Part shown: positions 5,518 through 20,652 of the stretch, piece by piece
Numbering within the stretch: the first letter of the stretch is position 1
Layout: every line of letters starts with the position of its first letter
Assembly (NCBI GenBank): GCA_902778935.1
Contig: CACYZT010000002.1
Coordinates: 62,001 to 126,000, forward strand
Direction of reading: 5' to 3'
Source of the DNA: an uncultured Bacteroidales bacterium
GTDB lineage: Bacteria > Bacteroidota > Bacteroidia > Bacteroidales > Paludibacteraceae
DNA: 64,000 nucleotides
The notes under the pieces: model-generated
Database searches by the model: none
What the model saw: only the letters and a program-made list of their open reading frames with translations
What the model was told of the DNA's origin: nothing
Translations under genes and position numbers: made by a program

Positions 5518-7341
5518 ATGCCAACCATTGCCGACCTTCGATTCTCAAAATGCGCCTACTTTTATAAGTTGAAACAACATGAGACAATATCCAATGCAGA
5601 AATACATCGGATGATGATGTTAGTAACGGAAGATAAAATACGTAGGAATTATGCCGTCGATGAAGAACGTCAGCCATCAAGTGTTGCAGGTGTACAATAC
5701 TCAATGCGGGTATTCAAATGCAAACCAATACCGCCACAATTCATTGCAAATAATGGTCGGGGATGGGAAGAACAAAAGATAGGATACTTTCTATTTATAG
5801 AATACTTGGAATATATAGTCATACTTCGCAGAAATGCAACAATACCAAAGTTTATCTCCGAAAAACTTCTAAATATTGACTACGATGATCAAATTGCTAT
5901 CAAAGCAAATGCAAACACGTCGTTTAAGAAACTAAGTATGCAGAATCTTGACGGATCAGACAAGGCAATGAGATATAAATCGTTTGAAGCTCTCAATCTT
6001 ACAGATAATATCTCACCCCTTGGAATGAATCGTTATTTTGTTAGAACAGTAAAAGGAAGCAATGGAGATGACGACAACTTCTCGCTGACATTATATGCCT
6101 CACGCATAAATGAGTTCGAGTCAAATTTGACTATAGAGGACGTGTGCGAATGGGCTAAAAGAAAAATAGATGAGATAAGAACAGTTCATGGACAAGCACC
6201 TATAACTCTATTGTCATCGTTCGCCTGCCCCCAAAAATATGGGACGATATACAAAACGCTCGTGCCATCATCTATACTTTTGTTCTATGGTATGCTGTCA
6301 TCTATGAACGAAGAAACGAATACTGAGTTCTGGAGAACTGATGGTCATAGTCATAGAACGACTCAGATAGACATTGCAGTGTTTGAACGATATATCAAGA
6401 CATTCAGCAAAGCGTTTACCCAAATAAATTCAATTAGAATAGACGGACAAGATTACTACTATTTCGGCAACAATAACGCTGTAGAGATTAGAATCTTAAG
6501 TTCAGGAATCAAATTGGAATGCAAGACGTGGGAAAACATCCTAATTACAAATTCTGCTGAAGGCAAATTTGATGGTACTCTACAGGACTTTTTCAATAAT
6601 TATCAGCAATTTAACATCTGTTTTACTAGACCCGATATCGTGTATAGCAATCGGATGCTTTTTAGCGACAAGCAACTATTACAGAATATACCACAGTTGT
6701 TGAAAGTGTTGCAGCCCAAGAACTGGTTGAGAGGACTGCTTTACGAGAAGCACGACAGAGGAAGAGGTTCTTTAAGAGGTTTAAATAACTGGCATCAGGA
6801 TAGTATATTCTATCAGGTAGAACTACATGAGAAGGGGAACTTTACATACTTTATCTGTGACGACTGTAATGACGAATGGGCTGACCATATTGGTGTGTCG
6901 GAAGATAGAGTGACCTTCTATTGTTCTAAACATAAGAATTCTATTGATTCTGCATCAGATTTTCAGGATGTGGTTGGGCAGGCAATGAAGAATCTTGCAA
7001 ACCTCGCACCTACAAAACTGCAGTTAGAACATAAAGCACTATCGTGGTCTGGACCATATCAAAACTCTAATATGCTGCGTTTACGTTTTGGTAATGGAAC
7101 TATTCGGAATGCTGTTGATATATGGTATAACAATGAAAATAGTCCTAAATTTGAACGAACAATGTGCTTGGTAGTAGATTTCTTATCATATACGAGATTT
7201 GAGAAACAGTTGAAGACAATGGCTGCAACATATCCGAATAACATTGACAGCGAACTATATCAGAGATTATGGTTGCTATCTTCTTTTGTGAGTGCGTGCT
7301 TAGATATGGGCGTGAAGCCAATAATTTATTGTAAGCCATAG
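5518..7341 (+). CDS. Large protein of unknown function with a nuclease-like C-terminal core
   Basis: 607 residues, no signal peptide or membrane segment. I do not recognise the N-terminal 430 residues. Around residues 447-475 it has C-D-D-C-N-D-E-W-A-D-H-I followed by a strand ending C-S-K-H-K, then an S-A-S-D-F-Q-D-V-V-G-Q segment. This D-E-x-A-D ... K-H layout recurs, as I remember it, in C-terminal domains of defence-associated proteins and resembles a PD-(D/E)xK-like core; nuclease activity is inference. It stands alone (gaps of 285 and 183 bp) ahead of the six-gene operon. The start is the first ATG of the frame. Probably accessory. Confidence 0.5.
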   Translation: MPTIADLRFSKCAYFYKLKQHETISNAEIHRMMMLVTEDKIRRNYAVDEERQPSSVAGVQYSMRVFKCKPIPPQFIANNGRGWEEQKIGYFLFIEYLEYIVILRRNATIPKFISEKLLNIDYDDQIAIKANANTSFKKLSMQNLDGSDKAMRYKSFEALNLTDNISPLGMNRYFVRTVKGSNGDDDNFSLTLYASRINEFESNLTIEDVCEWAKRKIDEIRTVHGQAPITLLSSFACPQKYGTIYKTLVPSSILLFYGMLSSMNEETNTEFWRTDGHSHRTTQIDIAVFERYIKTFSKAFTQINSIRIDGQDYYYFGNNNAVEIRILSSGIKLECKTWENILITNSAEGKFDGTLQDFFNNYQQFNICFTRPDIVYSNRMLFSDKQLLQNIPQLLKVLQPKNWLRGLLYEKHDRGRGSLRGLNNWHQDSIFYQVELHEKGNFTYFICDDCNDEWADHIGVSEDRVTFYCSKHKNSIDSASDFQDVVGQAMKNLANLAPTKLQLEHKALSWSGPYQNSNMLRLRFGNGTIRNAVDIWYNNENSPKFERTMCLVVDFLSYTRFEKQLKTMAATYPNNIDSELYQRLWLLSSFVSACLDMGVKPIIYCKP

Positions 7342-7452
7342 TATATATAGAAATTGACAAACACCAGCTCCTATCTTATTATACGCATGTAGCATAATAA
7401 TGTAAACAACAAGCATAAAAACGGCTTTTTAATACAAAATTGATAATTATTC

Positions 7453-7505
7453 GCAAAAAGAATGGCATATGCTTGCATATGTCATTTATTTTTTGTAATT
7501 TTGCG
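7453..7505 (+). repeat. 53-bp perfect repeat carrying a promoter, copy 1
   Basis: Bases 7453-7505 are identical to 15464-15516. The block begins GCAAAAAGAATGGCATATGC and ends GTAATTTTGCG, so it includes a complete Bacteroidota promoter. Each copy sits in front of an ATPase gene. Confidence 0.95.
7473..7504 (+). promoter_or_regulatory. Promoter of the six-gene operon
   Basis: TTGCATAT at 7473-7480 and TAATTTTGC at 7496-7504, box starts 23 bp apart as at ten other sites in this window. The predicted transcription start falls just before the ATG at 7525, which supports that start over one at 7462 (which would lie upstream of the promoter). Confidence 0.8.
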
Positions 7506-7524: not shown

Positions 7525-8835
7525 ATGTGTAGAATAAAAATTCACAATCTTGGCCCGGTGAAAGACGTAGAGTTTGTACTCAATCGTATCAATGTAATAA
7601 CCGGTCCGCAATGCAGTGGTAAGAGTACCATCGCAAAGGTGGTTTGTGCTTGTTCATGGTTAGAGAAAGATGCTGTACGTCGCCAGTCTTTGACGCATGT
7701 GACGCGCGAAGTATTCGAGCAAGTTCTGTTTACTTATCATCAGTTGGATAAATATCCGAAGCACGATGATATAGAGGTGGAGTACGATGGTGATGCATTG
7801 TATGTGCGATACACGAAAGACTCCTTTGATGTACACATGGCTGCTGGATTTGAGCAGAAATCATTAGGAAAGGTTGCTTACCTTCCTGCAGAACGAAATA
7901 TCGCAGCGATAGAGAATGTGGAGTCATTTAAGTTGCCGGAAATCAATATCCGTGGATATCTGTGGGATTGGTTCATTATTCGAACGAAATACACGGATGC
8001 TAATCCCTTGGATTTGTTTAGTCTTGGTATCAAGTACTATTATAGTAAAGAAAGAGGGGATGTACTGCGGTTAGCAAACGGAAAGGAGATTCCATTGAAT
8101 ACTGCTTCGAGTGGTTTACAATCTGTAACCCCATTGTATGCATGCATTCACTATATGACATCGTGGATTTATCAGAATAAGGAGGATGCGTCATACGAAG
8201 AGAAAGAAATGCTTGAAAAAGCTATTTATATGCGAATGTCCAGAAAAGATTATAAGGAGAAGGGCATTGATATACCTGATAATATTTTAGAAACTCAAAT
8301 TTTACCAGGTGTTTTGGATGTAACGCATAGAGTAATAGAACAAATTATTAATTCTCCAGCAGCTGATGAAATTCGGATGACTGAAGGATATGTAAACAAT
8401 ATTGCAGAACTAATTTCGCAGTTGTCTCAACCTCATTATTCTCGGATTATTTTAGAAGAGCCGGAGATGAACTTGTTCCCTCAGAGTCAGATTGATTTGG
8501 TGTATGATATGCTGAGGATGGTAGATGTCAACCGCGATTCGTTGTTCATCAATACGCATAGTCCGTATATTCTGTATGCATTGAATAACTGTATGCTCGG
8601 AGGATTGGTGAAGGATAAGATTGACGATGAAGAGTTGTTGGTGCAGCAAGATTCGTACATTGATCCGAAGTTGGTTTCGGTATGGGAGTTGCGTGATGGC
8701 GTCTTCTCGTCGAAGATGGAGAACAAAGAGAGAACCATTCAAGATGCAGAGGGATTGATTCGCTCCAATTATTTCGACCGGGTAATGCATAATGTGATGG
8801 CAGACTATCATAATTTGATGAATTACCATGATTGA
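7525..8835 (+). CDS. AAA family ATPase (OLD/AAA_15-like), first gene of six-gene operon
   Basis: 436 residues from the ATG 20 bp after the promoter. Walker A is G-P-Q-C-S-G-K-S-T at residues 27-35, in the position typical of SMC/OLD-type ATPases (M-C-R-I-K-I-H-N-L-G-P-V-K lead-in). The Walker B-like strand is I-I-L-E-E-P-E-M-N-L-F-P around residue 308 and the switch is I-N-T-H-S-P-Y-I-L around 340. There is no fused TOPRIM nuclease, unlike OLD proper; the next gene, overlapping by 8 bp, is a candidate nuclease partner. ATPase-plus-nuclease pairs of this kind are common in phage defence. Role inferred from context. Confidence 0.8.
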   Translation: MCRIKIHNLGPVKDVEFVLNRINVITGPQCSGKSTIAKVVCACSWLEKDAVRRQSLTHVTREVFEQVLFTYHQLDKYPKHDDIEVEYDGDALYVRYTKDSFDVHMAAGFEQKSLGKVAYLPAERNIAAIENVESFKLPEINIRGYLWDWFIIRTKYTDANPLDLFSLGIKYYYSKERGDVLRLANGKEIPLNTASSGLQSVTPLYACIHYMTSWIYQNKEDASYEEKEMLEKAIYMRMSRKDYKEKGIDIPDNILETQILPGVLDVTHRVIEQIINSPAADEIRMTEGYVNNIAELISQLSQPHYSRIILEEPEMNLFPQSQIDLVYDMLRMVDVNRDSLFINTHSPYILYALNNCMLGGLVKDKIDDEELLVQQDSYIDPKLVSVWELRDGVFSSKMENKERTIQDAEGLIRSNYFDRVMHNVMADYHNLMNYHD

Positions 8836-9436
8836 TGTCCCCTCAACATTCAACAAGTATCAGCAGTTTGTTAATGAGGCTTACGTGGTAGATTACACCA
8901 ATCACCCCACTAATGAACATACTGCGTTGGAGTTACTGCCGGAAACGCCGGCGGTTATGGTGGAGCATGAGGGTAAGCAAGTGCCAATGCCGTATTTTGC
9001 GCTTGTGAAGCATAATACATCACGAGATTGTGCCTTTTATGGCGTGAACTTCGAGGAGAATCATTCGTTGTTTGAAGGACATAAACAATACGAATGTTTG
9101 TTTACTCCGAAGACAGGACATAAACCTTGGGTGCTGCTATTGGAGATGAAGTATTGCAAGCTTGGCAATGAACCGCAGAACATGAATGAGGCTTTGCAGC
9201 AATTGGTGGCTACGTTGACTCATTTGGAGAGTAGAAATAAGATTAATAGGCATGAACAGCGAATCTATCTAAATATCTCAATGCCTTGGTCTGACGCGGA
9301 GCCGTTTACCAGTTTTCGGGAGACATTGAATGATGTAGCAGAGGCTTTGGCGAATGATAAAGTGATGCTTCTTGGGTATAATAAGTTGCTCATTCATACA
9401 GAGAGTGTAATCAAGTCCGCTCGGGTGGAGGTGTGA
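8828..9436 (+). CDS. Hypothetical protein, possible ExK nuclease partner of the ATPase
   Basis: 202 residues, no signal or membrane segment. Around residues 100-112 a hydrophobic strand ends in L-L-L-E-M-K-Y-C-K, an E-x-K arrangement as in PD-(D/E)xK nucleases, followed by a helix N-E-A-L-Q-Q-L. A clear upstream acidic partner cannot be fixed by eye. It overlaps the ATPase gene by 8 bp, which suggests co-translation and a complex. Nuclease function is a hypothesis only. Confidence 0.5.
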   Translation: MIDVPSTFNKYQQFVNEAYVVDYTNHPTNEHTALELLPETPAVMVEHEGKQVPMPYFALVKHNTSRDCAFYGVNFEENHSLFEGHKQYECLFTPKTGHKPWVLLLEMKYCKLGNEPQNMNEALQQLVATLTHLESRNKINRHEQRIYLNISMPWSDAEPFTSFRETLNDVAEALANDKVMLLGYNKLLIHTESVIKSARVEV

Positions 9437-9466
9437 TGGGGCGTATGGAATTGTCACGAAAGAAAG

Positions 9467-10501
9467 ATGGATTTACCTTCAACCCGATATTATGGCTCCA
9501 AGCGGAAATTAGTAGAGAATATCTGGTCTGCGTTGGATGGACTTCACCTTGAATACGAATCGGTTTTAGATTTGTTTGGAGGAACGGGAATTTTATCGTA
9601 TTACATGGCTTTGCAAAACAAGCACGTGATCTATAATGACATAATGGCTTTCAACTGCGAGATTGCGAAAGCCTTGTTATGTTCTCCTAAAGGAATTTTT
9701 ACCGAGGCCGATGCACATGATTTATTACGCGAAGATGTGGAATGTGACTATCTACATCATGTGAGAGATCTCTATGCCGGAGTGTATTATACTCAGGATG
9801 AAAATAATGCGATAGATATTGTCATTCAGAATATTAATAGAATACCAGAGGAACAACGAAGTAGTGCTTATTATATTCTTTTTCAAAGTTGTTTAATCAA
9901 ACGTCCCTTTAACATTTTTCATCGGAGAAATTTGAATTTGCGTGAGAATCATGTGAAATCGCGATTTGGCAATAAAACAACATGGGAGAAATCATTTGAA
10001 GTGTTGTTCTCGCAATTTACCAAAGAATTGAATCGATATCAGTTAGAGCAATTACCCAATGCTCAAATTTCTAACCAATCGGCACTCAATCTTGATATAC
10101 ATGCAGATTTGGTGTATATAGACACACCATATTTCTCTAAAAATAGTACTCCGATATCATATCACAACCGATATCATTTTTTAGAGGGACTGATGCACTA
10201 TGCAGATATTCCAGATCACATTAACTATGCTAAGACGAATCGTGAGTTGGATTTTGGTAGATGTAGAGAATTTGAGAATAAATTGACATATCTTGATGAC
10301 TTGCATCAATTGCTGGATATGCATCGTGATTCTATAATTGCATTGTCATATACGACCAATGGATATCCCTCTACGGAAGAACTGAGAGATGCTATGTCCC
10401 AGCATAAAGAGCATGCGCAAGTAATAGATCTTGGTGAGCATTCATTTGCTTTGAATAAAGACAACAATGAGCGGCATGAGGTGCTGATAGTAGGATATTA
10501 A
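9467..10501 (+). CDS. D12-class DNA adenine N6-methyltransferase
   Basis: 344 residues. It has the hallmark N-terminal Y-Y-G-S-K-R-K-L, the AdoMet-binding D-L-F-G-G-T-G at residues 35-41 and a motif IV variant D-T-P-Y at 219-222 (family norm D-P-P-Y), placing it in the D12/Dam class of adenine methylases. In this operon it may protect host DNA from the neighbouring ATPase/nuclease-like pair, or act in modification with the nucleotide enzymes downstream; both are inference. It starts 30 bp after the previous gene. The D-T-P-Y change is conservative and seen in some family members. Confidence 0.85.
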   Translation: MDLPSTRYYGSKRKLVENIWSALDGLHLEYESVLDLFGGTGILSYYMALQNKHVIYNDIMAFNCEIAKALLCSPKGIFTEADAHDLLREDVECDYLHHVRDLYAGVYYTQDENNAIDIVIQNINRIPEEQRSSAYYILFQSCLIKRPFNIFHRRNLNLRENHVKSRFGNKTTWEKSFEVLFSQFTKELNRYQLEQLPNAQISNQSALNLDIHADLVYIDTPYFSKNSTPISYHNRYHFLEGLMHYADIPDHINYAKTNRELDFGRCREFENKLTYLDDLHQLLDMHRDSIIALSYTTNGYPSTEELRDAMSQHKEHAQVIDLGEHSFALNKDNNERHEVLIVGY

Positions 10502-10518
10502 TATAAAATACTCATAAT

Positions 10519-11232
10519 ATGAAACAAATTTTTGATGTGCAATGTAAAATTAAATTGTCTCAAATTATTGGTTGGTCTCTTGTAGTAGCTACGTTGGTCA
10601 GCGGTACTATCTATTGGTTTTATCCTACATCATTGTGGGGAATGGTTATGGGTAGTCTTACCGCTGGTTTGATAGTTGCAATTATTCAGTTTCTTATGGC
10701 GAAACGAGAATATGAGATGTTAGAGAAAATAGAGGATTTAGAGTTAGTAAAAGTTCTTTATAATAGGGATGATAGAACGTACTATGAGAATTTGATTAGA
10801 AAATCTAACAAATCAATCAAGGTGATGGGAGTAACTGCGAAACGTTTCTTTGAACATTTTGCAGATACGCATAACGGTGCACCAGACAATGCACGAGTTT
10901 TACTGGTAGCAATGGAAAGAGGTGTGAACGTGCAGATATTACTGCCACATGAGGATTTTTTACCTGAAGATAAAAAAGATGCTCACCGTCAAGTAAAGCA
11001 CACTCTCCAGGAGATACAACGAAGAAATTATACGGGGAAGATTGAAATTAAATATTTTCTGCATACCCCTGCGCATAGCATTTTTATGGTAGATAATAAT
11101 TGTATAGTAGGGCCGGTGTTTGAGAGGGTAGAAAGTAAGTACACACCTGCATTGCACTTGAAGAAAGATAGTCCTTTTGCTGTAAAATATCTTGAGCACT
11201 TCGATGCAGAATGGAAATCACTAAATGGATAG
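10519..11232 (+). CDS. Membrane-anchored phospholipase D-like protein
   Basis: 237 residues. Two transmembrane helices lie at about residues 15-35 and 39-58, then a soluble domain. That domain has V-M-G-V-T-A-K-R-F-F near 95 and H-S-I-F-M-V-D near 185, followed by I-V-G-P. This resembles half of an HKD (PLD) site, but the lysine is missing (H-x5-D only), so catalysis is doubtful and a binding role is possible. It starts 17 bp after the methylase and overlaps the next gene by 8 bp, firmly within the operon. A membrane-tethered effector or sensor is an inference. Confidence 0.6.
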   Translation: MKQIFDVQCKIKLSQIIGWSLVVATLVSGTIYWFYPTSLWGMVMGSLTAGLIVAIIQFLMAKREYEMLEKIEDLELVKVLYNRDDRTYYENLIRKSNKSIKVMGVTAKRFFEHFADTHNGAPDNARVLLVAMERGVNVQILLPHEDFLPEDKKDAHRQVKHTLQEIQRRNYTGKIEIKYFLHTPAHSIFMVDNNCIVGPVFERVESKYTPALHLKKDSPFAVKYLEHFDAEWKSLNG

Positions 11233-12211
11233 AAGTTTAAAGATAGAAACATATTCTCGCATTCATATCACACTAATAGGAATGAATGTTGAAGGCTACC
11301 GTAGAAATGGAGGTATAGGTTTTTCTATTGACAGACCTACGATGATTTGTAAGTTTGTCCCATCAGATACGTTTCGGATAATAGACAATCGTTCGGATGC
11401 CTTAAATTATCAGGAACACGAGAGGTTACTAAGTCATTTAAAAGATCTTTATTTGCGTTATGGATGTGTTAGAACTTTTGAATGTACTATAGAAAGTGAC
11501 ATCATTCCGCATTGCGGTTTTGGTTCTTCTACGATGTTATATCTGTCAGTCACAGAGGCACTTTTCATACTCAATAATGTTCAATACAGTCGTGAGCAAT
11601 TGGTAAAAGCATCTGGAAGAGGAGGTACGTCCGGTATAGGAATCAATACCTATTTCGATGGTGGCTTTATATGTGATATTGGTGTTAAGAATACAGGTGG
11701 CAAAACCTCAATAACTCCCTCTTCTATATCGGAGAATGATAATCAGCCATTTGTGGTATATCGGCACTTAATGCCCCAATGGGAATTTGGTGTTTGTATA
11801 TCTAGACAACTTGGATTTCTTACGGAAAAAGAAGAGGTATCTTTCTTTGATCATATAAGATCTATTAATCAGTCTGAGATAAACGAAATATTATATCACG
11901 CAATATATGGTATAGTTGCTTCAATAGAAGAGAATGATTTCGCGACATTTAAGAAAGCAATAAAACATATTCAGAGCACCCAATGGAAATCATTAGAACG
12001 TTCGATTTACGGAAAGGAAATAGAATCAATCGAACAAATACTATATGATAACGGAGCAGATGCCGTAGGTATGTCAAGTTTAGGCCCGTTGCTTTTCTTT
12101 ACTTCTAATAACGTAGATCAAGTCGTTAAAAATATTAATAATAAGCATCAGGATTTGGTATGTTTCAAAACTCAATCCAATAATTCTCCACGTTTATTAT
12201 CAATACTATGA
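11225..12211 (+). CDS. GHMP-family protein similar to beta-RFAP synthase
   Basis: 328 residues. A GHMP phosphate-binding loop, I-P-H-C-G-F-G-S-S-T, lies at about 94-103, and G-R-G-G-T-S-G-I-G-I-N at 131-141 runs into F-D-G-G-F, the pattern I associate with beta-ribofuranosylaminobenzene 5'-phosphate synthase. That enzyme couples PRPP with p-hydroxy/aminobenzoate in methanopterin synthesis, a pathway not expected in Bacteroidales, so a different PRPP- or nucleotide-related reaction seems likely here. It overlaps both neighbours (8 and 4 bp), so is translationally coupled to the HAM1/kinase fusion. Confidence 0.65.
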   Translation: MDRSLKIETYSRIHITLIGMNVEGYRRNGGIGFSIDRPTMICKFVPSDTFRIIDNRSDALNYQEHERLLSHLKDLYLRYGCVRTFECTIESDIIPHCGFGSSTMLYLSVTEALFILNNVQYSREQLVKASGRGGTSGIGINTYFDGGFICDIGVKNTGGKTSITPSSISENDNQPFVVYRHLMPQWEFGVCISRQLGFLTEKEEVSFFDHIRSINQSEINEILYHAIYGIVASIEENDFATFKKAIKHIQSTQWKSLERSIYGKEIESIEQILYDNGADAVGMSSLGPLLFFTSNNVDQVVKNINNKHQDLVCFKTQSNNSPRLLSIL

Positions 12212-13827
12212 AACTATATTTCATTACATCTAATCGTGCTAAGTTGGCTAATGCTAAGCATATTTGCAAAGATTATGATATCGCCATAGTTCCGCACAAA
12301 AAACTATTCTACGGTTATGGATATCAGGAACCGCGTATTCAATTTCGTGAGCAATTGTTAGAATCAAGTATAGAAAGTGCGATTCGTAGATGGGAGAAAT
12401 ATGTTCATGGTCGAGCAAATGATAGTTTCTTCTTTATAGAAGATACGTCTGTAAGAATAGCAGCTCTGAGTAACGAAAATGAAGAGGTTCCAGGTGTAGA
12501 TGTGAAGTATTGGATGGAGGACATGACATTTGATAAATTAGATGCGCTATTGAAGGAGAGAGGGAATGATCGATCAGCGCGTGTGATGTCTCATGTCATT
12601 TTGTATATTCCTCCCCAAGTTCGCAAACAAATAGGGAAGGACAATGAGTATATTCGATTTACAAGTCATACCGATGGAATTATTTCGGAAAAAGAGCACG
12701 AGATTCAAACGAATATACTTTATCCGTGGCTAGATAATAAAACTTTTAATAAATGGTTTGTCCCGAATGGAGAAAGTATGCCGATGAGCTTATTGGACAT
12801 TGCAAGTGCTGACAGGTGTGATTTTAGGCGCGGAGCATTTGAACAAATGATTCATTTTCTTCAAGACTATAAGTTGTTAAAGCCGAAAAGAGGAGATATA
12901 AATATTATATCCCCAAAACTCTTTTCAAAGCGATTATTGTTTTGTGGAGAGACTTGTGCCGGAAAGTCAACAGCTGGTCGTTACTTATTGGAGAAATATG
13001 GACTATACCATATAGAGGCAAGTGACTTTATGGGTGTTATCTATCATGAGACATGTGGCAAGGATACAACAATAAACAAGCATGATTTTGCATCGAGACT
13101 TTTAAAAGCAGAACCAACTGTTATAGCAGAGCAAGTGGTTCAATATATTATGAGCAAGGGATTAGAGGATAGTTTTGTCGTAACGGGTTTTCGTAATAAT
13201 GAGGAGATAGATTATTTTGTTAAAAACTTTGCTATTCTAGATGAGTATTCCTTTTATATCGAATCAAGTGAGGGTGTTCGATTTGATAGATGGGTGCGTA
13301 GACGACGAGATCCACACGCTGTATATTCCAGGGAAGAATTTGCAAGAATCAATGATGTGCAAAGCGGGATGGGAGTTTGTGAAATTAAAAATAGAAAGGG
13401 AATCCAAATTATCAAGAATGACTTTAAAAATCATAAATCGTATTATGATGCATTAGATAATGTCGTAAGCGATATTGACACTATATATGAAGAAAAAGTA
13501 GCAGACAGAATAAAGCATTTTCAGAATACAAAACAATTGTCGCTGGAGAAGTGTATATTATTGACACTTGCGTTTGAGTATTTGACAGATGAGAATATAT
13601 ATTTTACGACAGCTCAGATTGCTAAAAAAATTAATGCATTATTTCCGTCTATAGAAAGAAAAAAAAACAAAAACAATGTAAGCCGTTATTTCAATATGTC
13701 TTTGTATCCATACTATGAATTAAGTACACGAGAAGAAAAGATTGTCTACAAATTATCCCCACTTGGATATTCAGAGGCATTGCTGATGCTTAAACATTTG
13801 GAAAATAAAAAAATAGGCATTAAATAG
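12208..13827 (+). CDS. HAM1-like NTP pyrophosphatase / P-loop kinase / C-terminal domain fusion
   Basis: 539 residues with three parts. Residues 1-220 resemble non-canonical purine NTP pyrophosphatases: T-S-N-R-A-K at 7-12, then F-I-E-D-T-S-V near 76-82 and V-P-G-V-D-V-K near 94. Residues 240-420 are a P-loop kinase: G-E-T-C-A-G-K-S-T at 247-255, V-V-T-G-F-R-N-N-E-E near 324, R-F-D-R-W-V-R-R-R-R near 358, like dephospho-CoA-kinase/UPF0200 proteins. The C-terminal 90 residues look helical, possibly winged-helix. ATGA overlap with the GHMP gene. Such a fusion suggests cleaning or making an unusual nucleotide; I do not know a characterised equivalent. Confidence 0.75.
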   Translation: MKLYFITSNRAKLANAKHICKDYDIAIVPHKKLFYGYGYQEPRIQFREQLLESSIESAIRRWEKYVHGRANDSFFFIEDTSVRIAALSNENEEVPGVDVKYWMEDMTFDKLDALLKERGNDRSARVMSHVILYIPPQVRKQIGKDNEYIRFTSHTDGIISEKEHEIQTNILYPWLDNKTFNKWFVPNGESMPMSLLDIASADRCDFRRGAFEQMIHFLQDYKLLKPKRGDINIISPKLFSKRLLFCGETCAGKSTAGRYLLEKYGLYHIEASDFMGVIYHETCGKDTTINKHDFASRLLKAEPTVIAEQVVQYIMSKGLEDSFVVTGFRNNEEIDYFVKNFAILDEYSFYIESSEGVRFDRWVRRRRDPHAVYSREEFARINDVQSGMGVCEIKNRKGIQIIKNDFKNHKSYYDALDNVVSDIDTIYEEKVADRIKHFQNTKQLSLEKCILLTLAFEYLTDENIYFTTAQIAKKINALFPSIERKKNKNNVSRYFNMSLYPYYELSTREEKIVYKLSPLGYSEALLMLKHLENKKIGIK

Positions 13828-14966: not shown

Positions 14967-15368
14967 ATGGTAATAACGAACGAATTATTAAATCATCTCA
15001 GCGCACAGGCGAAGGTTAATCCGCGATTGAGGCAGAACTATGACTTGCGCAATTCGGATGCAGACCAGAGTCAACGGATGCTGAATGCATTAGAGCCGGG
15101 GACCATTGTGCCTATTCATCGACACAGGACATCGTCAGAGATTGTGACGATTGTGCGCGGTGCCATACGTGAATATTTCTATGACGAGAACGGGACGGTG
15201 ACGGAAACGATTGAGTTACGCCATGGTTGTTCCGTGCCGCTATTGGTTGTCCTGAAGGGTGTATGGCATAACCTGGAATGCCTTGAGCCGGATACCATCA
15301 TCTACGAAAGCAAAGACGGAGCGTACCAGCCCATGGCTGCAGAGGATGTGATGGCGGTTCATGGTTAA
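14967..15368 (+). CDS. wbuC: WbuC-family cupin-fold metalloprotein
   Basis: 133 residues. The cupin core is visible as G-T-I-V-P-I-H-R-H-R-T-S-S-E around 48-61 (two His and one Glu of the metal site) and a late G-V-W-H-N-L-E. The lead-in L-R-Q-N-Y-D-L-R-N-S and Q-S-Q-R-M-L-N-A-L-E-P-G are typical of WbuC proteins found in O-antigen loci; their reaction is not established. The C-terminal codons run into a GGTTCAT word array, so the last few residues may derive from repeat sequence. Confidence 0.85.
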   Translation: MVITNELLNHLSAQAKVNPRLRQNYDLRNSDADQSQRMLNALEPGTIVPIHRHRTSSEIVTIVRGAIREYFYDENGTVTETIELRHGCSVPLLVVLKGVWHNLECLEPDTIIYESKDGAYQPMAAEDVMAVHG

Positions 15369-15444
15369 GGGGGATGAATGGTTCACGGTTAACGATTCAT
15401 GGTGATGGATGGTTCACGGTTCACGGTTCATGGTTAATGGTTAC
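15357..15444 (+). repeat. GGTTCAT/GGTTAAT/GGTTCAC word array
   Basis: About ten degenerate copies of a 7-bp word GGTT(C/A)A(T/C) run from the last codons of wbuC to just before the 53-bp promoter repeat. One of at least eight such arrays in this window. Confidence 0.85.
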
Positions 15445-15463
15445 GATTTTTTGAAAAAAATCT

Positions 15464-15516
15464 GCAAAAAGAATGGCATATGCTTGCATATGTCATTTAT
15501 TTTTTGTAATTTTGCG
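15464..15516 (+). repeat. 53-bp perfect repeat carrying a promoter, copy 2
   Basis: Identical over 53 bases to 7453-7505. The copies lie 8,011 bp apart in direct orientation, so recombination between them would remove the six-gene operon plus the transferase and wbuC. Confidence 0.95.
15484..15515 (+). promoter_or_regulatory. Promoter of the DUF4143 ATPase gene
   Basis: TTGCATAT at 15484-15491 and TAATTTTGC at 15507-15515, box starts 23 bp apart. The transcript would begin just before the 33-bp tandem repeat leader and reach the ATG at 15612. Confidence 0.8.
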
Positions 15517-15525
15517 CCGAATTTG

Positions 15526-15611
15526 TTGGAAAAACGGACAAAATGCGGACAATATACATTGGAAAAAAGGACAAAACAAGCAAAATTAGTATTGAAAAAA
15601 CGGACAAAGTT
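15526..15611 (+). repeat. 33-bp period tandem repeat in the leader of the ATPase gene
   Basis: The core TTGGAAAAACGGACAAAA recurs with small changes at 15526, 15559 and 15592, an exact 33-bp period. It fills the stretch between promoter and start codon. In another frame it encodes an 11-residue repeat (L-E-K-R-T-K), but no good start exists there, so a regulatory or coding-relic origin is equally possible. Confidence 0.8.
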
Positions 15612-16955
15612 ATGCTTAATCGACACATTGACAGCGTAATAGAACGGCATTATGCCACAACCAAGAAGGCTTTGCTACTTTCCGGAGCAAGACAGGTAGG
15701 TAAAACATTTGCTATCAGACGATACGCCAAGCAAGCCGGTTTGGATCTAGTAGAGATGAATTTCCTCCTACAACCTGAAACGAAGCGTATTCCGGAGGGT
15801 GCAGCGAACGTACAGGAACTACTGCTGCGTATCTCTGCATATGCCAATAGGCCGTTAGAGCCCGGCAAGACGCTAATCTTCTTTGACGAAGTGGAGGAGT
15901 ACGCAGATATCCTAACGTGGGTAAAAGCACTGGTGGATGAGGGACGATTCAAATATGCGTTGAGCGGTTCGTTGTTAGGATTAGAACTGAATGACGTCCG
16001 TTCTGAACCGGTTGGATATATGTCCGAATTCCAGATGTTTCCATTGGATTTCGAAGAGTTCATCCGTAATTTGGGAGTATCGGAAGATGTGCTGAAATCA
16101 GTACATGAATCGTGGGAGCAGCACAAGTTGGTGGACAATTATATACATGAGAAGTTGATTCGTTTGTTCAATCTCTACTTGATAGTCGGAGGTATGCCGG
16201 CTGCGGTGCAGACGTATGTGGATACGAACGATTTGCAACGCGTACTGCTGGAGCAACAATCTATTCTAACGCTATATCGGAGAGATATTGCACGCTACGA
16301 TCCGGACGACAAACTCTACATCAATGATATTTTCGAGTTGATTCCATCTGAACTGAACGCCAAGAACAAACGTTTCATCCTCAAGGATCTCAACGAGCAC
16401 ATCAAGTTCTCTCGGCACGAGAACAGTTTTGTATGGCTACGCGATGCAGATATGGCGCTGCCCACCTACAATGTAGAGGAACCGCGTGTGCCGCTAAAAC
16501 TGAATGAATTGCGCAATCTATTCAAGTTGTTCCAAAACGACGTGGGTCTTTTGGCATCGCAGTACGTAGGAGGTATTCAGCTGAAGATACTGCAAGGCGA
16601 CGTAAATATCAATAACGGAGCAATATACGAGAATGCAGTGGCGCAGGAACTGCATGCACATGGATGGAAATTGCGGTATTTCAACAGCAAGAAGCAAGGT
16701 GAGGTGGATTTTCTGTTAGAGCAAGACGATGTGATTATTCCGTTAGAAGTGAAGTCCGGGAAGGACTATCAGCGGCATGCGGCATTGAGCAATATAATGA
16801 AGAATAAGGAGTATGGAATTCATCGTGCGATTGTGCTGAGTAATGATAATCTATCCGAGAGCGAAAATGTTGTGTATGCACCGATTTATATGACGATGTT
16901 CCTGCATCATCGTGAGCCACAAGAACCGATGGTGTATAAGCCAGAGTTGCCGTAG
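15612..16955 (+). CDS. AAA ATPase with C-terminal DUF4143-type nuclease-like domain
   Basis: 447 residues from the ATG at 15612; an in-frame ATG at 15543 would lie inside the tandem-repeat leader. Walker A S-G-A-R-Q-V-G-K-T-F is near residues 23-32 and Walker B I-F-F-D-E-V-E near 87. The C-terminal half ends with E-V-D-F-L-L-E then L-E-V-K-S-G-K-D near 380, the restriction-endonuclease-like fold of DUF4143. Members are widespread in Bacteroidales, often in many copies; their function is unknown, with mobile or defence roles suggested. It shares its promoter sequence with the ATPase at 7525. Confidence 0.85.
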   Translation: MLNRHIDSVIERHYATTKKALLLSGARQVGKTFAIRRYAKQAGLDLVEMNFLLQPETKRIPEGAANVQELLLRISAYANRPLEPGKTLIFFDEVEEYADILTWVKALVDEGRFKYALSGSLLGLELNDVRSEPVGYMSEFQMFPLDFEEFIRNLGVSEDVLKSVHESWEQHKLVDNYIHEKLIRLFNLYLIVGGMPAAVQTYVDTNDLQRVLLEQQSILTLYRRDIARYDPDDKLYINDIFELIPSELNAKNKRFILKDLNEHIKFSRHENSFVWLRDADMALPTYNVEEPRVPLKLNELRNLFKLFQNDVGLLASQYVGGIQLKILQGDVNINNGAIYENAVAQELHAHGWKLRYFNSKKQGEVDFLLEQDDVIIPLEVKSGKDYQRHAALSNIMKNKEYGIHRAIVLSNDNLSESENVVYAPIYMTMFLHHREPQEPMVYKPELP

Positions 16956-16987
16956 AAATAAAAGTTCTTAGCCACAAGGGCATGATT

Positions 16988-17020
16988 AATTCATGGTTAA
17001 TGATTAAGGGTTAATGATTT
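16988..17020 (+). repeat. GGTTAAT word array
   Basis: Degenerate repeats of ATGGTTAATGATTAAGGGTTAATG lie between the ATPase and recQ. Same family as the arrays at 15357, 22932, 25184 and 35264. Confidence 0.7.
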
Positions 17021-17065
17021 TTGAAAAATACGGGGAAAGTATAAAAAGAATGGGGAGTTGTGTCA

Positions 17066-19117
17066 ATGCTACAAACACTAAAGAAATATTTCGGATATGA
17101 TTCTTTTCGACTATTACAACGGGAAATTATTGAGCATGTGATGGCCGGAGGCAATGCATTGGTGTTGATGCCTACCGGCGGAGGCAAGTCCCTTTGCTAC
17201 CAAATCCCAGCTCTGATGCGTCAGGGAGTTGGTGTTGTAATCTCTCCGCTTATTTCGCTGATGAAAGACCAAGTGGATGCGCTACGCGCTAACGGCATCG
17301 CAGCGGCGGCTATCAACAGCAATAACACCGAAGCCGAGAACCGGGCTATAATTGATCTTTGCCTACATGGTCAATTGAAACTGCTATATATCTCACCGGA
17401 ACGCTTTGTCATAGAGCAAAAACGCTTTCTTTCACGTATTCCTATTTCGCTATTTGCTATCGATGAGGCGCATTGTATCTCTCAATGGGGGCACGATTTC
17501 CGTCCGGAATACACCCAACTAGCTGATATTCGTTCAACATTCCCTGACGTACCTATCATGGCATTAACTGCCACTGCGGACAAAGTAACAAAAGAAGATA
17601 TTCTGCAACAATTGAATATTACAGACGCACAGCAGTTTATCAGTTCTTTCAACCGCCCGAACCTGAGTCTGCAAGTGTGCAGAGGCTATTCAGCTGCTGA
17701 CAAACTGAAACATATTTTGGCACTAATCCGCCTCCATCCCTATGAGAGCGGAATCATCTACTGTCTGGCGCGCAAAACGACCGAAGAATTAGTTGCGAAA
17801 CTCCAACGATACGGCATCTCTGCTGCTGCTTATCATGCCACACTCAGTTCTGAGGATCGCAACCGCGTGCAAGATGATTTTGTTAACGACCGTGTGCAAG
17901 TTGTGTGCGCCACCATCGCTTTCGGAATGGGCATTGACAAGAGCAACGTGCGTTTTGTCATCCATTATAACTTACCTAAAAGTATTGAAAACTACTACCA
18001 GGAAATAGGTCGTGGTGGACGAGACGGACTACCATGTGAGACAATTCTTTTCTATAACCTGCAAGACATCATTCTACTCAAACGGTTTGCACAAGAATCC
18101 GGACAAAGAGAAATTAACGAAGAGCGGTTGAATAGAATGCAAGAATACGCAGAAGCACAAGTTTGCCGAAGACGAATCTTGCTAAATTATTTTGGGGAAG
18201 TGTCTGAATGTCAGTGCGGTAACTGCGATGTATGCAATAATCCGCCGGAACAATTCGATGGCACACGTTATGCTCAAATGGCTCTATCTGCCATTATACG
18301 AGCCAACGAACAAGTGGGATTTACTACCACTATTGATATCCTGCGCGGTAATGCCACAAGGGAGGTTCTGACACATGGTTATTCACAACTTCCCACATTC
18401 GGTGTTGGTCAAGAGTTTTCTTTCCGTGAATGGCATGACTACCTACTACAAATGCTTCAAATGGGTTTGATTGAATTAGATTACAAAGAAAATCGACATA
18501 TACATGTAACGGCATTAGGCAAATCCGTACTCTTCAAATGTAAAACCGTACAGCTTTCAAAGGTTGTCAAAGAAGACTTGCGTGTCAAGAACAAACGCAC
18601 AAAAATTTCCGCTTTGACGAATATACAAATTGCGAAACTATCATCCATTTCCACAACCAAACCGGTACTCGTTGAGGATAAAGAACTTTTCGAACGTCTG
18701 CGTCAATTACGCATACAGATTGCCCGCGAGGAGCATCTCCCACCCTATATTATTTTCTCGGACAAGACACTCCACGAACTCGCCACTTACAAACCACAGA
18801 ACATAGCCGCTTTCGGCATGATATATGGAGTTGGAGAAAACAAACAAGCCAAATACGGTGCAATTTTTATTGAAGCTATTATTGGCAAAAAAGTAGAGGA
18901 GGTAGAAAAACCTCCAGTACAACCGACTTCAACCAAATCACACATGCAGGAGCAAAAGGAATTACACGCAAATGCATATGTGCAGTGGTCTGAGAGCGAG
19001 GATAAAGAGTTGAAACGCCTATACGAGCAAGGATTTCAAATAAAAGATCTATCTATCATCTTCCAACGTAATACCGGTTCTATCAGGAGTAGGTTAAAGA
19101 AATTAGGATTAATTTAA
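17066..19117 (+). CDS. recQ: ATP-dependent DNA helicase RecQ
   Basis: 683 residues from the ATG 8 bp after a GGGGAG ribosome site (17052-17057); a GTG at 17060 would be too close to it. A superfamily-2 helicase core includes P-T-G-G-G-K-S, D-E-A-H-C-I-S-Q-W-G-H near 132 and G-R-G-G-R-D-G near 315. Four zinc cysteines follow at about 366-393, then the winged-helix RQC domain, an HRDC domain (L-F-E-R-L-R-Q-L-R near 540) and a C-terminal Myb/SANT-like helix bundle. It unwinds 3'-5' in recombination repair. Full length for the long Bacteroidota form. A second, shorter RecQ lies at 26828. Confidence 0.93.
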   Translation: MLQTLKKYFGYDSFRLLQREIIEHVMAGGNALVLMPTGGGKSLCYQIPALMRQGVGVVISPLISLMKDQVDALRANGIAAAAINSNNTEAENRAIIDLCLHGQLKLLYISPERFVIEQKRFLSRIPISLFAIDEAHCISQWGHDFRPEYTQLADIRSTFPDVPIMALTATADKVTKEDILQQLNITDAQQFISSFNRPNLSLQVCRGYSAADKLKHILALIRLHPYESGIIYCLARKTTEELVAKLQRYGISAAAYHATLSSEDRNRVQDDFVNDRVQVVCATIAFGMGIDKSNVRFVIHYNLPKSIENYYQEIGRGGRDGLPCETILFYNLQDIILLKRFAQESGQREINEERLNRMQEYAEAQVCRRRILLNYFGEVSECQCGNCDVCNNPPEQFDGTRYAQMALSAIIRANEQVGFTTTIDILRGNATREVLTHGYSQLPTFGVGQEFSFREWHDYLLQMLQMGLIELDYKENRHIHVTALGKSVLFKCKTVQLSKVVKEDLRVKNKRTKISALTNIQIAKLSSISTTKPVLVEDKELFERLRQLRIQIAREEHLPPYIIFSDKTLHELATYKPQNIAAFGMIYGVGENKQAKYGAIFIEAIIGKKVEEVEKPPVQPTSTKSHMQEQKELHANAYVQWSESEDKELKRLYEQGFQIKDLSIIFQRNTGSIRSRLKKLGLI

Positions 19118-19255
19118 CGAATGCAAATAATTGAAGGAAATGGTAGAAGGTGTTGGCACCGATAGACCAGTTGTCTAAATCACTAATCCTAATTATAGAG
19201 TAAGAAGAATCTCTAAAAAAAAATGCAATTATTCGACAAAAAGTAACGATTTCAT

Positions 19256-19287
19256 TTGCTTATTCGACAAAAAATAACTATCTTTGC
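19256..19287 (+). promoter_or_regulatory. Promoter upstream of ogt
   Basis: TTGCTTAT at 19256-19263 and TATCTTTGC at 19279-19287, box starts 23 bp apart. The TTATTCGACAAAA word within it also occurs at about 19229, 31 bp upstream, a possible operator pair. Confidence 0.7.
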
Positions 19288-19299
19288 AGCGGAATTTGA

Positions 19300-19386
19300 A
19301 AAGACAGGAACAAAGTACGCATTACACCCAAAGGTCTGGACCTCTTCGCCCAACTTACCGACAACACCTCGGAAAGCCAAGAATAA
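19300..19386 (+). pseudogene. Possible MarR-type regulator 3' remnant
   Basis: A 28-codon frame closed by TGA just upstream reads D-R-N-K-V-R-I-T-P-K-G-L-D-L-F-A-Q-L, which resembles the wing and start of the last helix of MarR-family repressors, then stops 6 bp before ogt. No start or N-terminal part remains. Short matches like this can arise by chance. Confidence 0.3.
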
Positions 19387-19392
19387 CTTGCC

Positions 19393-19905
19393 ATGACAAA
19401 TACCGCCACATATATCTCGCCTCTGGGGTCTATCATCATAGAAAGTGACGGCGAGGCCATAACGAGTCTGCGGTTTTGTAGGGAGCAAAACTCAGCAACA
19501 CAAGGAGAATATGCCCCCAAAGCAACAACTACCCCACCGCCGATTATCGCGGAAACCATCCAATGGTTAGATGATTATTTTGCGGGCAAACGACCATGTA
19601 ATGTGCCGCGGCTCAATCCGCAAGGCACAGACTTTCAAAAGCGCGTATGGCAGGCATTACTGACCATTCCATATGCTCAGACCAAGACTTACGGAGAAAT
19701 CGCCAAGATGGTGGATTGCCGTTCCGCACAAGCGGTCGGACAAGCCTTGGGAGCCAATCCTATTGCCCTCATCATCCCCTGCCACCGAGTCATTGCCGCA
19801 CATGGCAAAATTGGCGGGTACGAATACGGAACGGAGATAAAAAAGAAACTTCTGGAACTGGAAGGAAATCCTACTAAAACATCCGTAATGCTAACGAGAT
19901 GGTAA
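19393..19905 (+). CDS. ogt: Methylated-DNA--protein-cysteine methyltransferase
   Basis: 170 residues, the usual Ogt length. The active-site stretch I-P-C-H-R-V-I-A (Cys about 132) is intact, preceded by the helix-turn-helix Y-G-E-I-A-K and followed by G-G-Y-E-Y-G. It removes methyl groups from O6-methylguanine in a suicide reaction. Start ATG at 19393; the leader carries a probable gene remnant after the promoter at 19256. Confidence 0.93.
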   Translation: MTNTATYISPLGSIIIESDGEAITSLRFCREQNSATQGEYAPKATTTPPPIIAETIQWLDDYFAGKRPCNVPRLNPQGTDFQKRVWQALLTIPYAQTKTYGEIAKMVDCRSAQAVGQALGANPIALIIPCHRVIAAHGKIGGYEYGTEIKKKLLELEGNPTKTSVMLTRW

Positions 19906-19933
19906 CGTAAATGACTGCTAAAACAAAGCAACT

Positions 19934-20245
19934 ATGATAACTATTCAACACCAAGAGACCGAGAAGAGCGGCGTTTTTGAGGCGTGGATGCAAGCCACCG
20001 AAGAAAGCGCATGTACCGAACCGATGCAAGTAGGCGAAATGACATACCAACGCCCTACTCCCGAGCGGATGATCATTGACCACACACGCGTCTTTGAGGG
20101 CTTTGAAGGCCGCGGTATCGCCCGTCAGATGGTTCTTGCCGCTGTGGACTTTGCGCGTGCCAACAACCGCCAGATCATCCCTGTCTGCTCCTACGCGCAA
20201 GCTTTCCTCAACCGCACGGAGGAATACAAAGACGTACTGGAGTAA
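19934..20245 (+). CDS. Small GNAT-fold N-acetyltransferase (YjdJ type)
   Basis: 103 residues. The acetyl-CoA loop appears as G-F-E-G-R-G-I-A-R-Q-M-V near residues 57-68, after a typical H-T-R-V strand, with a closing I-P-V-C-S-Y-A sequence. This is the compact single-domain GNAT family of YjdJ-like proteins; substrate unknown. It starts 28 bp after ogt and is probably co-transcribed. Confidence 0.85.
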   Translation: MITIQHQETEKSGVFEAWMQATEESACTEPMQVGEMTYQRPTPERMIIDHTRVFEGFEGRGIARQMVLAAVDFARANNRQIIPVCSYAQAFLNRTEEYKDVLE

Positions 20246-20652
20246 GCAACATAGCGCCATCCCAACTCTGCGAAGTACGAAAAAGTTTATATTTAACCGA
20301 AAATGCGTAAGGAATAAATATTTTTTGCACACTAATTAATTTTTTTTTCGTTAAATAATTGCATATTTGATTTTTTTTATATCGTAACTTCAAGGACACT
20401 GACATAGATTATTCTATGTATTGTACTAATCCTCAAAGTGGGGACTTTTCGGTTGCAATACTCGTAGTGCCATCCGAGGCACTCCTTCACCTGTCGAAAT
20501 TACGTCCGCACAAACGTGCAAACAACAATCTTTTCTAAAAAAATACAAATTATACAAGCATATTTGGTTTTTTTGAGGCAAAATCTTGCATATTTGATTT
20601 TTTTTTAGTAATTTTGTAGCGAATTTAAAAAGATAATGCTAAAATCAATATT
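20246..20652. other. Gene-free stretch between GNAT gene and sodB remnant
   Basis: About 400 AT-rich bases. It holds two occurrences of TTGCATATTTGATTTTTTTT (20359 and 20586); only the second has a good TAATTTTGT box and is called a promoter. A 6-bp hairpin AGTGCC/GGCACT lies at 20466-20483. I see no gene. Confidence 0.6.
20586..20617 (+). promoter_or_regulatory. Promoter of the sodB pseudogene
   Basis: TTGCATAT at 20586-20593 and TAATTTTGT at 20609-20617, box starts 23 bp apart, 36 bp before the first ATG. The promoter is intact although the gene is broken. Confidence 0.75.

What the first reader, a model, noticed from the sequence alone, without database searches (positions are those of the whole stretch)
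7525..13827. Six-gene operon with no named equivalent: ATPase, nuclease-like, adenine methylase, membrane PLD-like, GHMP, HAM1/kinase fusion
Seen: six co-directional genes with overlaps of 8, 8 and 4 bp or gaps of 30 and 17 bp, behind one promoter at 7473-7504 and nothing between. Known: AAA/OLD-like ATPases with nucleases and adenine methylases are restriction or defence parts; HAM1 proteins destroy non-canonical NTPs; beta-RFAP-synthase-like proteins use PRPP. Inference: a single system that combines DNA methylation, nucleotide chemistry and a membrane component, perhaps making or policing an unusual nucleotide during phage attack. It sits as an insert within a polysaccharide locus.
Basis: partly seen in the sequence, partly recalled or inferred. 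Interest (0 to 1): 0.85.

Follow-up and report, generated by a model that had tools for sequence, protein, structure and literature searches.

The report
Mobile four-gene nucleotide-chemistry cassette
Four of the six genes form an apparently undescribed travelling gene set, shared by distant bacteria, that joins a DNA-marking enzyme to enzymes that look built to make and control an unusual nucleotide; the first two genes look like a separate, already listed candidate virus-defence pair sitting next door.

Summary
The six genes are real and packed as described, but most likely two units. Genes 1-2 (ATPase, 202-aa ExK protein) look like a divergent PDC-M29 pair, a listed phage-defence candidate that occurs without the rest in three Bacteroidota plasmids. 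Genes 3-6 (D12 adenine methylase, membrane PLD-fold protein, beta-RFAP-synthase-like protein, HAM1-kinase-winged-helix fusion) are a conserved mobile cassette. In 22 further loci (rhizobia, Sphingomonas, Cupriavidus, methanotrophs, Prevotella and others) the last three genes lie together in 22 of 22 (some copies broken) and the methylase in 18 of 22; the ATPase pair is beside it in 0 of 22 (upstream DNA visible in 20). The four proteins diverge in step. Gene 5 is closest in the PDB to ForT, the C-nucleotide synthase of formycin, and keeps its PRPP-binding residues; gene 6 keeps HAM1 catalytic residues but shows changes at base-pocket positions, and has an intact kinase P-loop; gene 4's PLD domain has lost HKD residues. 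Best reading: a mobile, probably anti-phage cassette that makes or polices a C-nucleotide, with methylation as self-mark. Defence and substrate are inferred, not shown. Nothing searched here names the combination. The operon promoter shares a palindrome with three others ahead of accessory, mostly defence-candidate genes.

The parts
9467..10501 (+). Cassette gene 1: D12-class N6-adenine DNA methyltransferase, 344 aa; motif IV reads DTPY here, DPPY in the 12 relatives aligned
   Evidence: PF02086 67.5 bits; PADLOC MTase_II 152 bits; alignment A8
10519..11232 (+). Cassette gene 2: two N-terminal hydrophobic helices + PLD-fold domain without the HKD lysine, 237 aa; probably a binding/sensor or scaffold part
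   Evidence: AlphaFold2 mean pLDDT 90.2; Foldseek TrmBL2, Nuc, Zucchini; alignment A6
11225..12211 (+). Cassette gene 3: beta-RFAP-synthase-family (GHMP fold) protein, predicted PRPP-dependent C-nucleotide synthase, 328 aa
   Evidence: TIGR00144 156 bits over cut-off 113.5; ForT 6yqq E 1.4e-40; PRPP residues
12208..13827 (+). Cassette gene 4: HAM1 pyrophosphatase domain (~1-225) + NMP-kinase-like P-loop domain (~240-425) + C-terminal winged-helix-like domain (~446-538, read from the model's helix-strand order), 539 aa
   Evidence: PF01725 51 bits; AdkA-like 3lw7 E 2.6e-12; model and Foldseek; alignment A5
7525..8835 (+). Separate unit, gene A: AAA_15 ATPase, divergent PDC-M29A
   Evidence: PDC-M29A 171.9 bits; relatives L030-L032
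8828..9436 (+). Separate unit, gene B: 202-aa protein with an E-[LM]-K ... Q motif (PD-(D/E)XK-like by eye), probably the divergent PDC-M29B partner
   Evidence: alignment with partners of three ATPase relatives; of those partners only L032's is PDC-M29B, 161 bits; the window protein itself has no PADLOC hit
7440..7505 (+). Promoter element with 24-bp palindrome-like operator (7462-7485) before the six genes; second copy at 15451-15516
5518..7341 (+). Neighbouring defence candidate PDC-S71, not part of the cassette
   Evidence: 475.5 bits

Best explanation
Genes 3-6 are a self-contained mobile cassette. Shown: conserved order, packed junctions, matched divergence, patchy spread. Inferred: the GHMP-fold protein uses PRPP and an aromatic acid to make a C-linked ribonucleotide (as ForT and beta-RFAP synthase do); the kinase part of gene 6 raises it to the di-/triphosphate; the HAM1 part, with changed pocket residues, cuts that triphosphate back to the monophosphate or binds it as a signal, so that one protein sets its level. 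The methylase marks host DNA as self, and the winged-helix end of gene 6 and/or the membrane PLD-fold protein reads the trigger. On infection by unmarked DNA the analogue builds up and blocks phage (and perhaps host) nucleic-acid synthesis. Genes 1-2 are a separate PDC-M29-like ATPase-nuclease defence candidate sharing the promoter.
For: Cassette: PLD-fold, GHMP and HAM1-kinase genes together in 22 of 22 non-window loci, methylase in 18 of 22 (L006 and L007 are near-identical plasmids); junctions -37 to +17 bp in 15 of 15 loci measured, window included; distance correlations 0.72-0.93 over 11 loci, reached by 0-8 of 5000 permutations. Chemistry: ForT E 1.4e-40; ForT R19/H99/T106/R135/S139, which contact PRPP (PMC8183095), align with R12, H96, T103, R132, S136, kept in 15, 13, 14, 15 and 15 of 15; three ordinary GHMP kinases of the same genome reach 5.4, 1.4 and -1.2 bits against the family profile. 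HAM1: K12, E41, E78-D79 and R207 invariant in 15 of 15, while human ITPase S176-H177 read D-F in 15 of 15 and the probable E22 position reads H (14) or N (1); the genome keeps its own standard RdgB elsewhere. Mobility: TIGR00144 in 1 of 296 genomes of the phylum, the window's own; HAM1-kinase in 5 of 151, 1 of 397 and 2 of 399 genomes of three host groups, the centre genome counted; relaxases, a transposase and an integrase among neighbours. Defence setting: neighbours in this genome; a type I methylase (HsdM) beside the L018 cassette.
Against: No experiment. Defence genes are not consistent neighbours elsewhere: of ten neighbour proteins picked by eye and scanned with Pfam, several are ordinary (T6SS IcmF and TagF, threonine dehydratase, IlvD, HD domain), and of nine of these scanned with PADLOC two hit, neither clearly a defence gene. 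The methylase is missing or a remnant in up to 4 of 22 loci, and some cassettes are broken. The window methylase has DTPY, not DPPY, so may be inactive. The HAM1 pocket argument is only suggestive: H177 is listed as dispensable in human ITPase and some viral HAM1 domains also vary at S176/H177. The aromatic partner is unknown and no enzyme for it is in the cassette. The equivalog model for true beta-RFAP synthase is not reached (191.6 of 328 bits). No match was found in phage records or viral contigs.
Confidence: 0.42

Rival explanations
1. Depletion, not synthesis: on infection the GHMP-fold enzyme burns PRPP and the HAM1 and kinase domains drain NTPs, stopping phage and host growth (abortive infection). 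The same parts, but no special product matters.
For: PRPP-binding residues and both nucleotide active sites are kept; nucleotide depletion is a known defence style (recalled).
Against: The invariant change at HAM1 pocket positions and the strict pairing with a C-C bond-forming enzyme family argue for one particular nucleotide; ITPase binds only NTPs with certain bases tightly (PMC5075207 passages).
Confidence: 0.2
2. Nucleotide-replacement kit: synthase + NMP kinase + NTP pyrophosphatase put an unusual nucleotide into host nucleic acid, as phage T4 does with hydroxymethyl-dCMP (gp42, gp1, gp56; recalled), together with adenine methylation as a modification-type self mark.
For: The enzyme trio has the same logic; a DNA methylase is encoded with it in 18 of 22 loci.
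Against: The predicted product is a ribonucleotide and no reductase or polymerase is in the cassette; no restriction nuclease was recognised in it.
Confidence: 0.1
3. Accessory metabolism or small-molecule production: a mobile operon making a C-ribonucleotide cofactor or antibiotic, unrelated to phages.
For: The family is known from methanopterin and from formycin/pyrazofurin pathways (PMC6787355, PMC8724604, passages); several hosts are methanotrophs; neighbours are often not defence genes.
Against: No exporter, phosphatase or ring-building enzyme among the four genes; a DNA methylase and a membrane PLD-fold protein have no obvious place in such a pathway; rhizobia, Prevotella and others carry it too.
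Confidence: 0.13
4. One reading: ATPase and nuclease are the effector of the methylase/nucleotide genes.
For: One promoter, 30-bp gap between genes 2 and 3. In Persicobacter a PDC-M29 pair also stands directly before a DNA methylase, of type III, so such pairs may work with a methylase.
Against: 0 of 22 other cassettes have the pair (20 with visible DNA there); the pair's relatives lack the cassette in three Bacteroidota plasmids, and two of these show no methylase as next gene; the pair is a listed two-gene candidate.
Confidence: 0.06

Closest known systems
ForT / PyfQ C-glycoside synthases and beta-RFAP synthase (TIGR00144)
   Same: Fold, whole-length homology, PRPP-binding residues, Arg matching R26/R33
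   Different: Below the beta-RFAP-synthase equivalog cut-off; sits with a DNA methylase and a HAM1-kinase fusion, not in a methanopterin or antibiotic pathway
HAM1/ITPase house-cleaning pyrophosphatases (RdgB)
   Same: Fold and catalytic residues
   Different: SHR signature is DFR, probable E22 position is H/N, fused to a kinase and a winged helix; the genome has a normal RdgB besides
Kongming (KomABC)
   Same: HAM1-fold part (KomBC entries 8zsg, 9v0g appear in the Foldseek list)
   Different: No SIR2 or deaminase domain reported for the six genes; a PRPP-type synthase, kinase and DNA methylase instead (Kongming make-up recalled)
PDC-M29 (PADLOC candidate) - for genes 1-2 only
   Same: ATPase + small ExK partner in the same order
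   Different: Divergent; partner not recognised by the PDC-M29B models
Methylase-based defence such as DISARM (methylase + PLD protein; recalled)
   Same: A DNA methylase beside a PLD-fold protein
   Different: No helicase or DUF1998 protein; PLD domain lacks the HKD lysine and is membrane-anchored

Membership tests
beta-RFAP synthase family (TIGR00144) | Score over the subfamily cut-off | tested here: met
   156.1 bits against 113.5
beta-RFAP synthase family (TIGR00144) | PRPP-binding residues of ForT | tested here: met
   R12, T103, R132, S136 and H96 kept in 15, 14, 15, 15 and 13 of 15
true beta-RFAP synthase (NF040726, methanopterin) | Score over the equivalog cut-off | tested here: not met
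   191.6 bits against 328
C-nucleotide synthase | C-C bond formation between PRPP and an aromatic acid | not testable with these tools
   needs enzyme assay
HAM1/ITPase | Family profile and catalytic residues | tested here: met
   PF01725 51.3 bits over 22.5; K12, E41, E78-D79 in 15 of 15
HAM1/ITPase | Purine pocket incl. SHR signature | tested here: not met
   D-F-R in 15 of 15, the R kept; RdgB equivalog cut-offs far off (33.1 of 203 and 25 of 145 bits)
HKD phospholipase D / nuclease | PLD fold | tested here: met
   (query TM-scores of the listed matches 0.34-0.47)
HKD phospholipase D / nuclease | HxKxxxxD catalytic motif | tested here: not met
   K position (placed by eye) is I/F/M/V in 17 of 17; H in 14 of 17
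D12 adenine methyltransferase | Profile and motifs incl. DPPY | tested here: inconclusive
   PF02086 met; window copy DTPY, 12 of 12 relatives DPPY
PDC-M29 (genes 1-2) | M29A ATPase followed by M29B | tested here: inconclusive
   A 171.9 bits; B no model hit, though it aligns with three partners, of which one is M29B and two also get no hit
Kongming | KomA deaminase, KomB HAM1, KomC SIR2 (recalled) | tested here: not met
   only a HAM1 domain found (Pfam at E 0.1)
DISARM | DrmA helicase, DrmB, DrmC, methylase (recalled) | tested here: not met
   no Drm name among the PADLOC hits shown for genes 3-6
phage-defence system (function) | Protection against phage | not testable with these tools
   needs plaque assay

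The most novel reading that the evidence does not exclude
A bacterial immune cassette that manufactures its own C-nucleoside antiviral: a formycin-type C-nucleotide is made inside the cell, charged by a fused kinase, policed by a fused HAM1 domain and let loose only against DNA that lacks the cassette's methyl mark.
Probability: 0.2. Interest if true: 0.92.

Novelty: categorically new. Interest (0 to 1): 0.7.

Why it matters
C-nucleotides are a proven bioactive chemistry (formycin and pyrazofurin in actinobacteria; the ForT paper PMC8183095 points to the antiviral C-nucleoside GS-5734). A portable bacterial cassette that seems to make and control one, wired to DNA methylation, would be a new logic of immunity and a source of new C-C bond-forming enzymes. 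Even if the product idea is wrong, a four-gene unit kept together across distant proteobacteria and Bacteroidota deserves a name and a test.

Tried and rejected
Six-gene unity: tested by searching ATPase and 202-aa genes in the cassette loci; no match in 22 (in L016 and L022 the contig ends too early to tell). HKD nuclease effector: rejected on residues. Phage-borne cassette: no match in phage records or viral contigs. Relatives of the HAM1-kinase in the same phylum: nothing real in 295 others (one hit at 18 bits with stops in frame was dropped as chance). Relatives of the 202-aa protein: none in 295 other genomes of the phylum or in plasmids. Empty-site comparison: only one near relative with the downstream GT4 gene was informative; in it (L046) the 4.4 kb upstream of that gene, to the contig end, hold other small ORFs and no cassette; the second relative (L047) shared too little. 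PDB searches with the HAM1 domain alone, the PLD protein and the methylase found nothing by sequence. Paper searches for the combination found no description: 1 unrelated paper; 0; 31, 15 listed; 0; 1 unrelated; 0; 9,082 at two of four terms; the ten listed hold the word ribofuranosylaminobenzene 0 times; 14, 10 listed; open-licence PMC only. Searches were for background on the families. Defence islands in other hosts were tried on ten (Pfam) and nine (PADLOC) neighbour proteins chosen by eye, later four and six more, among them an HsdM and an integrase beside cassettes: the context is mobile, not consistently defensive. In some searches at most three candidates per genome were scored. Junction gaps were measured in 14 of 22 other loci plus the window; L007 (frameshifts), L015, L016, L017, L021, L022, L023 and L059 were left out (broken, cut by contig ends, without methylase, or fetched later). 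The distance test used 11 of 23 loci, those present in all four alignments A5-A8; plasmid loci were left out of those alignments and L012 of the synthase one by my choice.
Full report
1. What is there. The six ORFs, overlaps and gaps are exactly as reported, with the ATPase better started at 7525. Domain assignments were checked with Pfam, PADLOC, NCBIfam and PHROGs. The block lies in a polysaccharide region.

2. Two units, most likely. A full-length search for the HAM1-kinase protein in plasmids found four records; their neighbourhoods show methylase - small membrane protein - beta-RFAP-synthase-like - HAM1-kinase in that order. One scan of 84,980 species genomes gave 17 more loci (a lower bound, since it works through two short peptide patterns), and a group search one more (G1249). 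In all 22 loci the last three genes are together, some copies broken or cut by contig ends. The methylase is beside them in 18 of 22 (in L016 only its end is visible at the contig edge, and in L007 it matches in shifted pieces); L017 has an 83-aa remnant, L015 and L021 have none there or elsewhere in the genome at E 1e-5, and L022 starts 0.5 kb upstream of the membrane gene and shows none. The ATPase and the 202-aa gene match at E 1e-3 in 0 of 22; 20 of the 22 show the DNA where they would be. Broken copies: L007 (several genes in shifted pieces; near-identical to L006), L015 (split PLD-fold gene), L017 (HAM1-kinase in two pieces).

3. Unit A. The ATPase scores 172 bits against PADLOC PDC-M29A. 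Three Bacteroidota plasmids carry a relative followed at once by a 161-170-aa gene and no cassette gene in the fetched flanks; the Persicobacter pair is a clean PDC-M29A (488 bits) + PDC-M29B (161 bits), the other two ATPases score 179 and 166 bits and their partners get no PADLOC hit. The window's 202-aa protein shares the E-[LM]-K and downstream Q with these partners, but no PDC-M29B model reaches it. In Bacteroides finegoldii the pair also sits inside a polysaccharide locus. In Persicobacter it lies between an Orf5/DUF262-type gene and a type III methylase, so a link of such pairs with a methylase cannot be ruled out.

4. Unit B is inherited as a block. For the 11 loci present in all four alignments, pairwise distances of the four proteins correlate at 0.72-0.93; 0 to 8 of 5000 permutations reach the value. 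This keeps host relatedness in, so it shows shared history rather than proving function. Junctions are -37 to +17 bp in 15 of 15 loci measured; 11 of 15 have a 4-bp overlap of methylase and membrane gene and 11 of 15 an 8-bp overlap of synthase and HAM1-kinase (start codons partly chosen by closeness to the window protein). Distribution is thin and scattered: 1 of 296 (the window's own genome; a second hit of 18 bits dropped), 5 of 151, 1 of 397, 2 of 399, the last three counts including the genome used as centre. TIGR00144 itself occurs in only 1 of 296 genomes of the phylum, the window's own. Neighbours include two relaxases and a transposase and an integrase.

5. The synthase. Its only solved relatives at E 0.001 are three ForT entries, best E 1.4e-40. 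In the ForT-PRPP paper (PMC8183095, main text read) Arg19, His99, Thr106, Arg135 and Ser139 contact PRPP, and Arg19, Thr106 and Arg135 are essential for binding; the aligned residues here are kept in 15, 13, 14, 15 and 15 of 15 sequences. The Arg matching ForT R33, which that paper equates with Arg26 of RFAP synthase (important for pABA binding in M. thermautotrophicus, PMC6787355, passages), is kept in 15 of 15; in ForT it lies 18 A from PRPP. As a control, three ordinary GHMP kinases of the same genome score 5.4, 1.4 and -1.2 bits against the 15-sequence profile; ForT scores 143 bits against the four-sequence profile. The second substrate cannot be read from sequence.

6. The HAM1-kinase-winged-helix protein. 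The AlphaFold model (mean pLDDT 83.8, pTM 0.60) matches HAM1 enzymes and, for the middle domain, AdkA-like kinases. Against the genome's own RdgB the catalytic positions are kept, but the SHR signature has become DFR in 15 of 15 and the probable E22 position H or N (which RdgB residue is E22 is my reading). E22, W151 and R178 are listed as essential, S176 as intermediate and H177 as dispensable for human ITPase, and some viral HAM1 domains vary at 176-177 too (PMC12846526 Table 6 and PMC5075207, passages); R178 is kept here. Alignment around W151/D152 is uncertain because of an insertion. So the domain probably cleaves or binds a triphosphate, perhaps of a base other than hypoxanthine or xanthine (inference).

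7. The membrane protein. Two hydrophobic stretches (seen in most of 17 sequences by hydropathy; both as helices in the model) and a PLD fold (mean pLDDT 90.2), matching TrmBL2, vaccinia F13, Nuc and Zucchini with modest TM-scores. The HKD lysine position is I/F/M/V in 17 of 17 and the histidine is kept in 14 of 17, so the usual nuclease or lipase activity is unlikely; TrmB-like ligand binding is a guess.

8. Mechanism. Synthase + NMP kinase + NTP pyrophosphatase is the set of activities needed to make, charge and limit one unusual nucleotide. Together with a DNA methylase and scattered, mobile distribution this most resembles a defence cassette whose weapon is a nucleotide analogue. Shown: gene set, order, homology, residue conservation. 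Inferred: product, trigger, target, defence. The window's own methylase has DTPY instead of DPPY, so this copy may be altered.

9. Known or not. PADLOC has no significant model for genes 4-6 (the best is 11 bits). Paper searches in open-licence PMC gave no description; subscription papers are largely unseen and PADLOC-DB is of 2023, so an unseen description is possible.

10. Side result. A promoter element with the palindrome ATGGCATATGCTTGCATATGTCAT stands at 7462 and 15473 (66-nt repeat, 92%; 0 expected in shuffles of the window) and, with two mismatches, at two more places of the same contig. The four head the six-gene operon, the DUF4143 gene (PDC-S01), a RhuM-like gene (PDC-S05; name by eye) and a small membrane/coiled gene without a PADLOC hit, followed by an AriA-like ATPase: a possible shared switch of accessory defence genes.

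Noticed in passing
window 7440-7505 and 15451-15516; L052 (same contig, outside the window) near 1003 and 5377: Palindromic promoter element present four times in the genome (up to 2 mismatches), each time on the same strand of one contig and ahead of accessory genes, mostly phage-defence candidates: PDC-M29-like operon, PDC-S01, RhuM-like/PDC-S05, and a small gene followed by an AriA-like ATPase.
   Followed up: partly
window 5518-7341: Upstream neighbour is a strong match to PADLOC candidate PDC-S71 (475.5 bits), so the block sits in a run of defence candidates.
   Followed up: partly
L032:2803-8665: In Persicobacter a PDC-M29 A/B pair is nested between an Orf5/DUF262-type gene and a type III DNA methylase, hinting that such pairs may ride in or join restriction loci.
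   Followed up: partly
L010:5946-7223 and L017:6256-7497: An ATPase of the DUF4143/AAA_14 type (by eye) lies just upstream of the cassette in Prevotella (overlapping the methylase by 4 bp) and in a methanotroph; the window has one downstream. Common genes, possibly chance.
   Followed up: no
L015:8198-9010, L017:8210-8965: Two methanotroph cassettes with lost or remnant methylase share a divergent version of the membrane PLD-fold protein.
   Followed up: no
L021:7417-8214: A cassette without methylase has a NYN + OST-HTH (LOTUS) protein in the place where the methylase usually is.
   Followed up: partly
L046:7843-17037: A same-genus relative with a 95% identical GT4 gene has other small ORFs directly upstream of it instead of the cassette, and lacks window 15355-20652 (DUF4143, RecQ, MGMT region) at this site.
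   Followed up: partly
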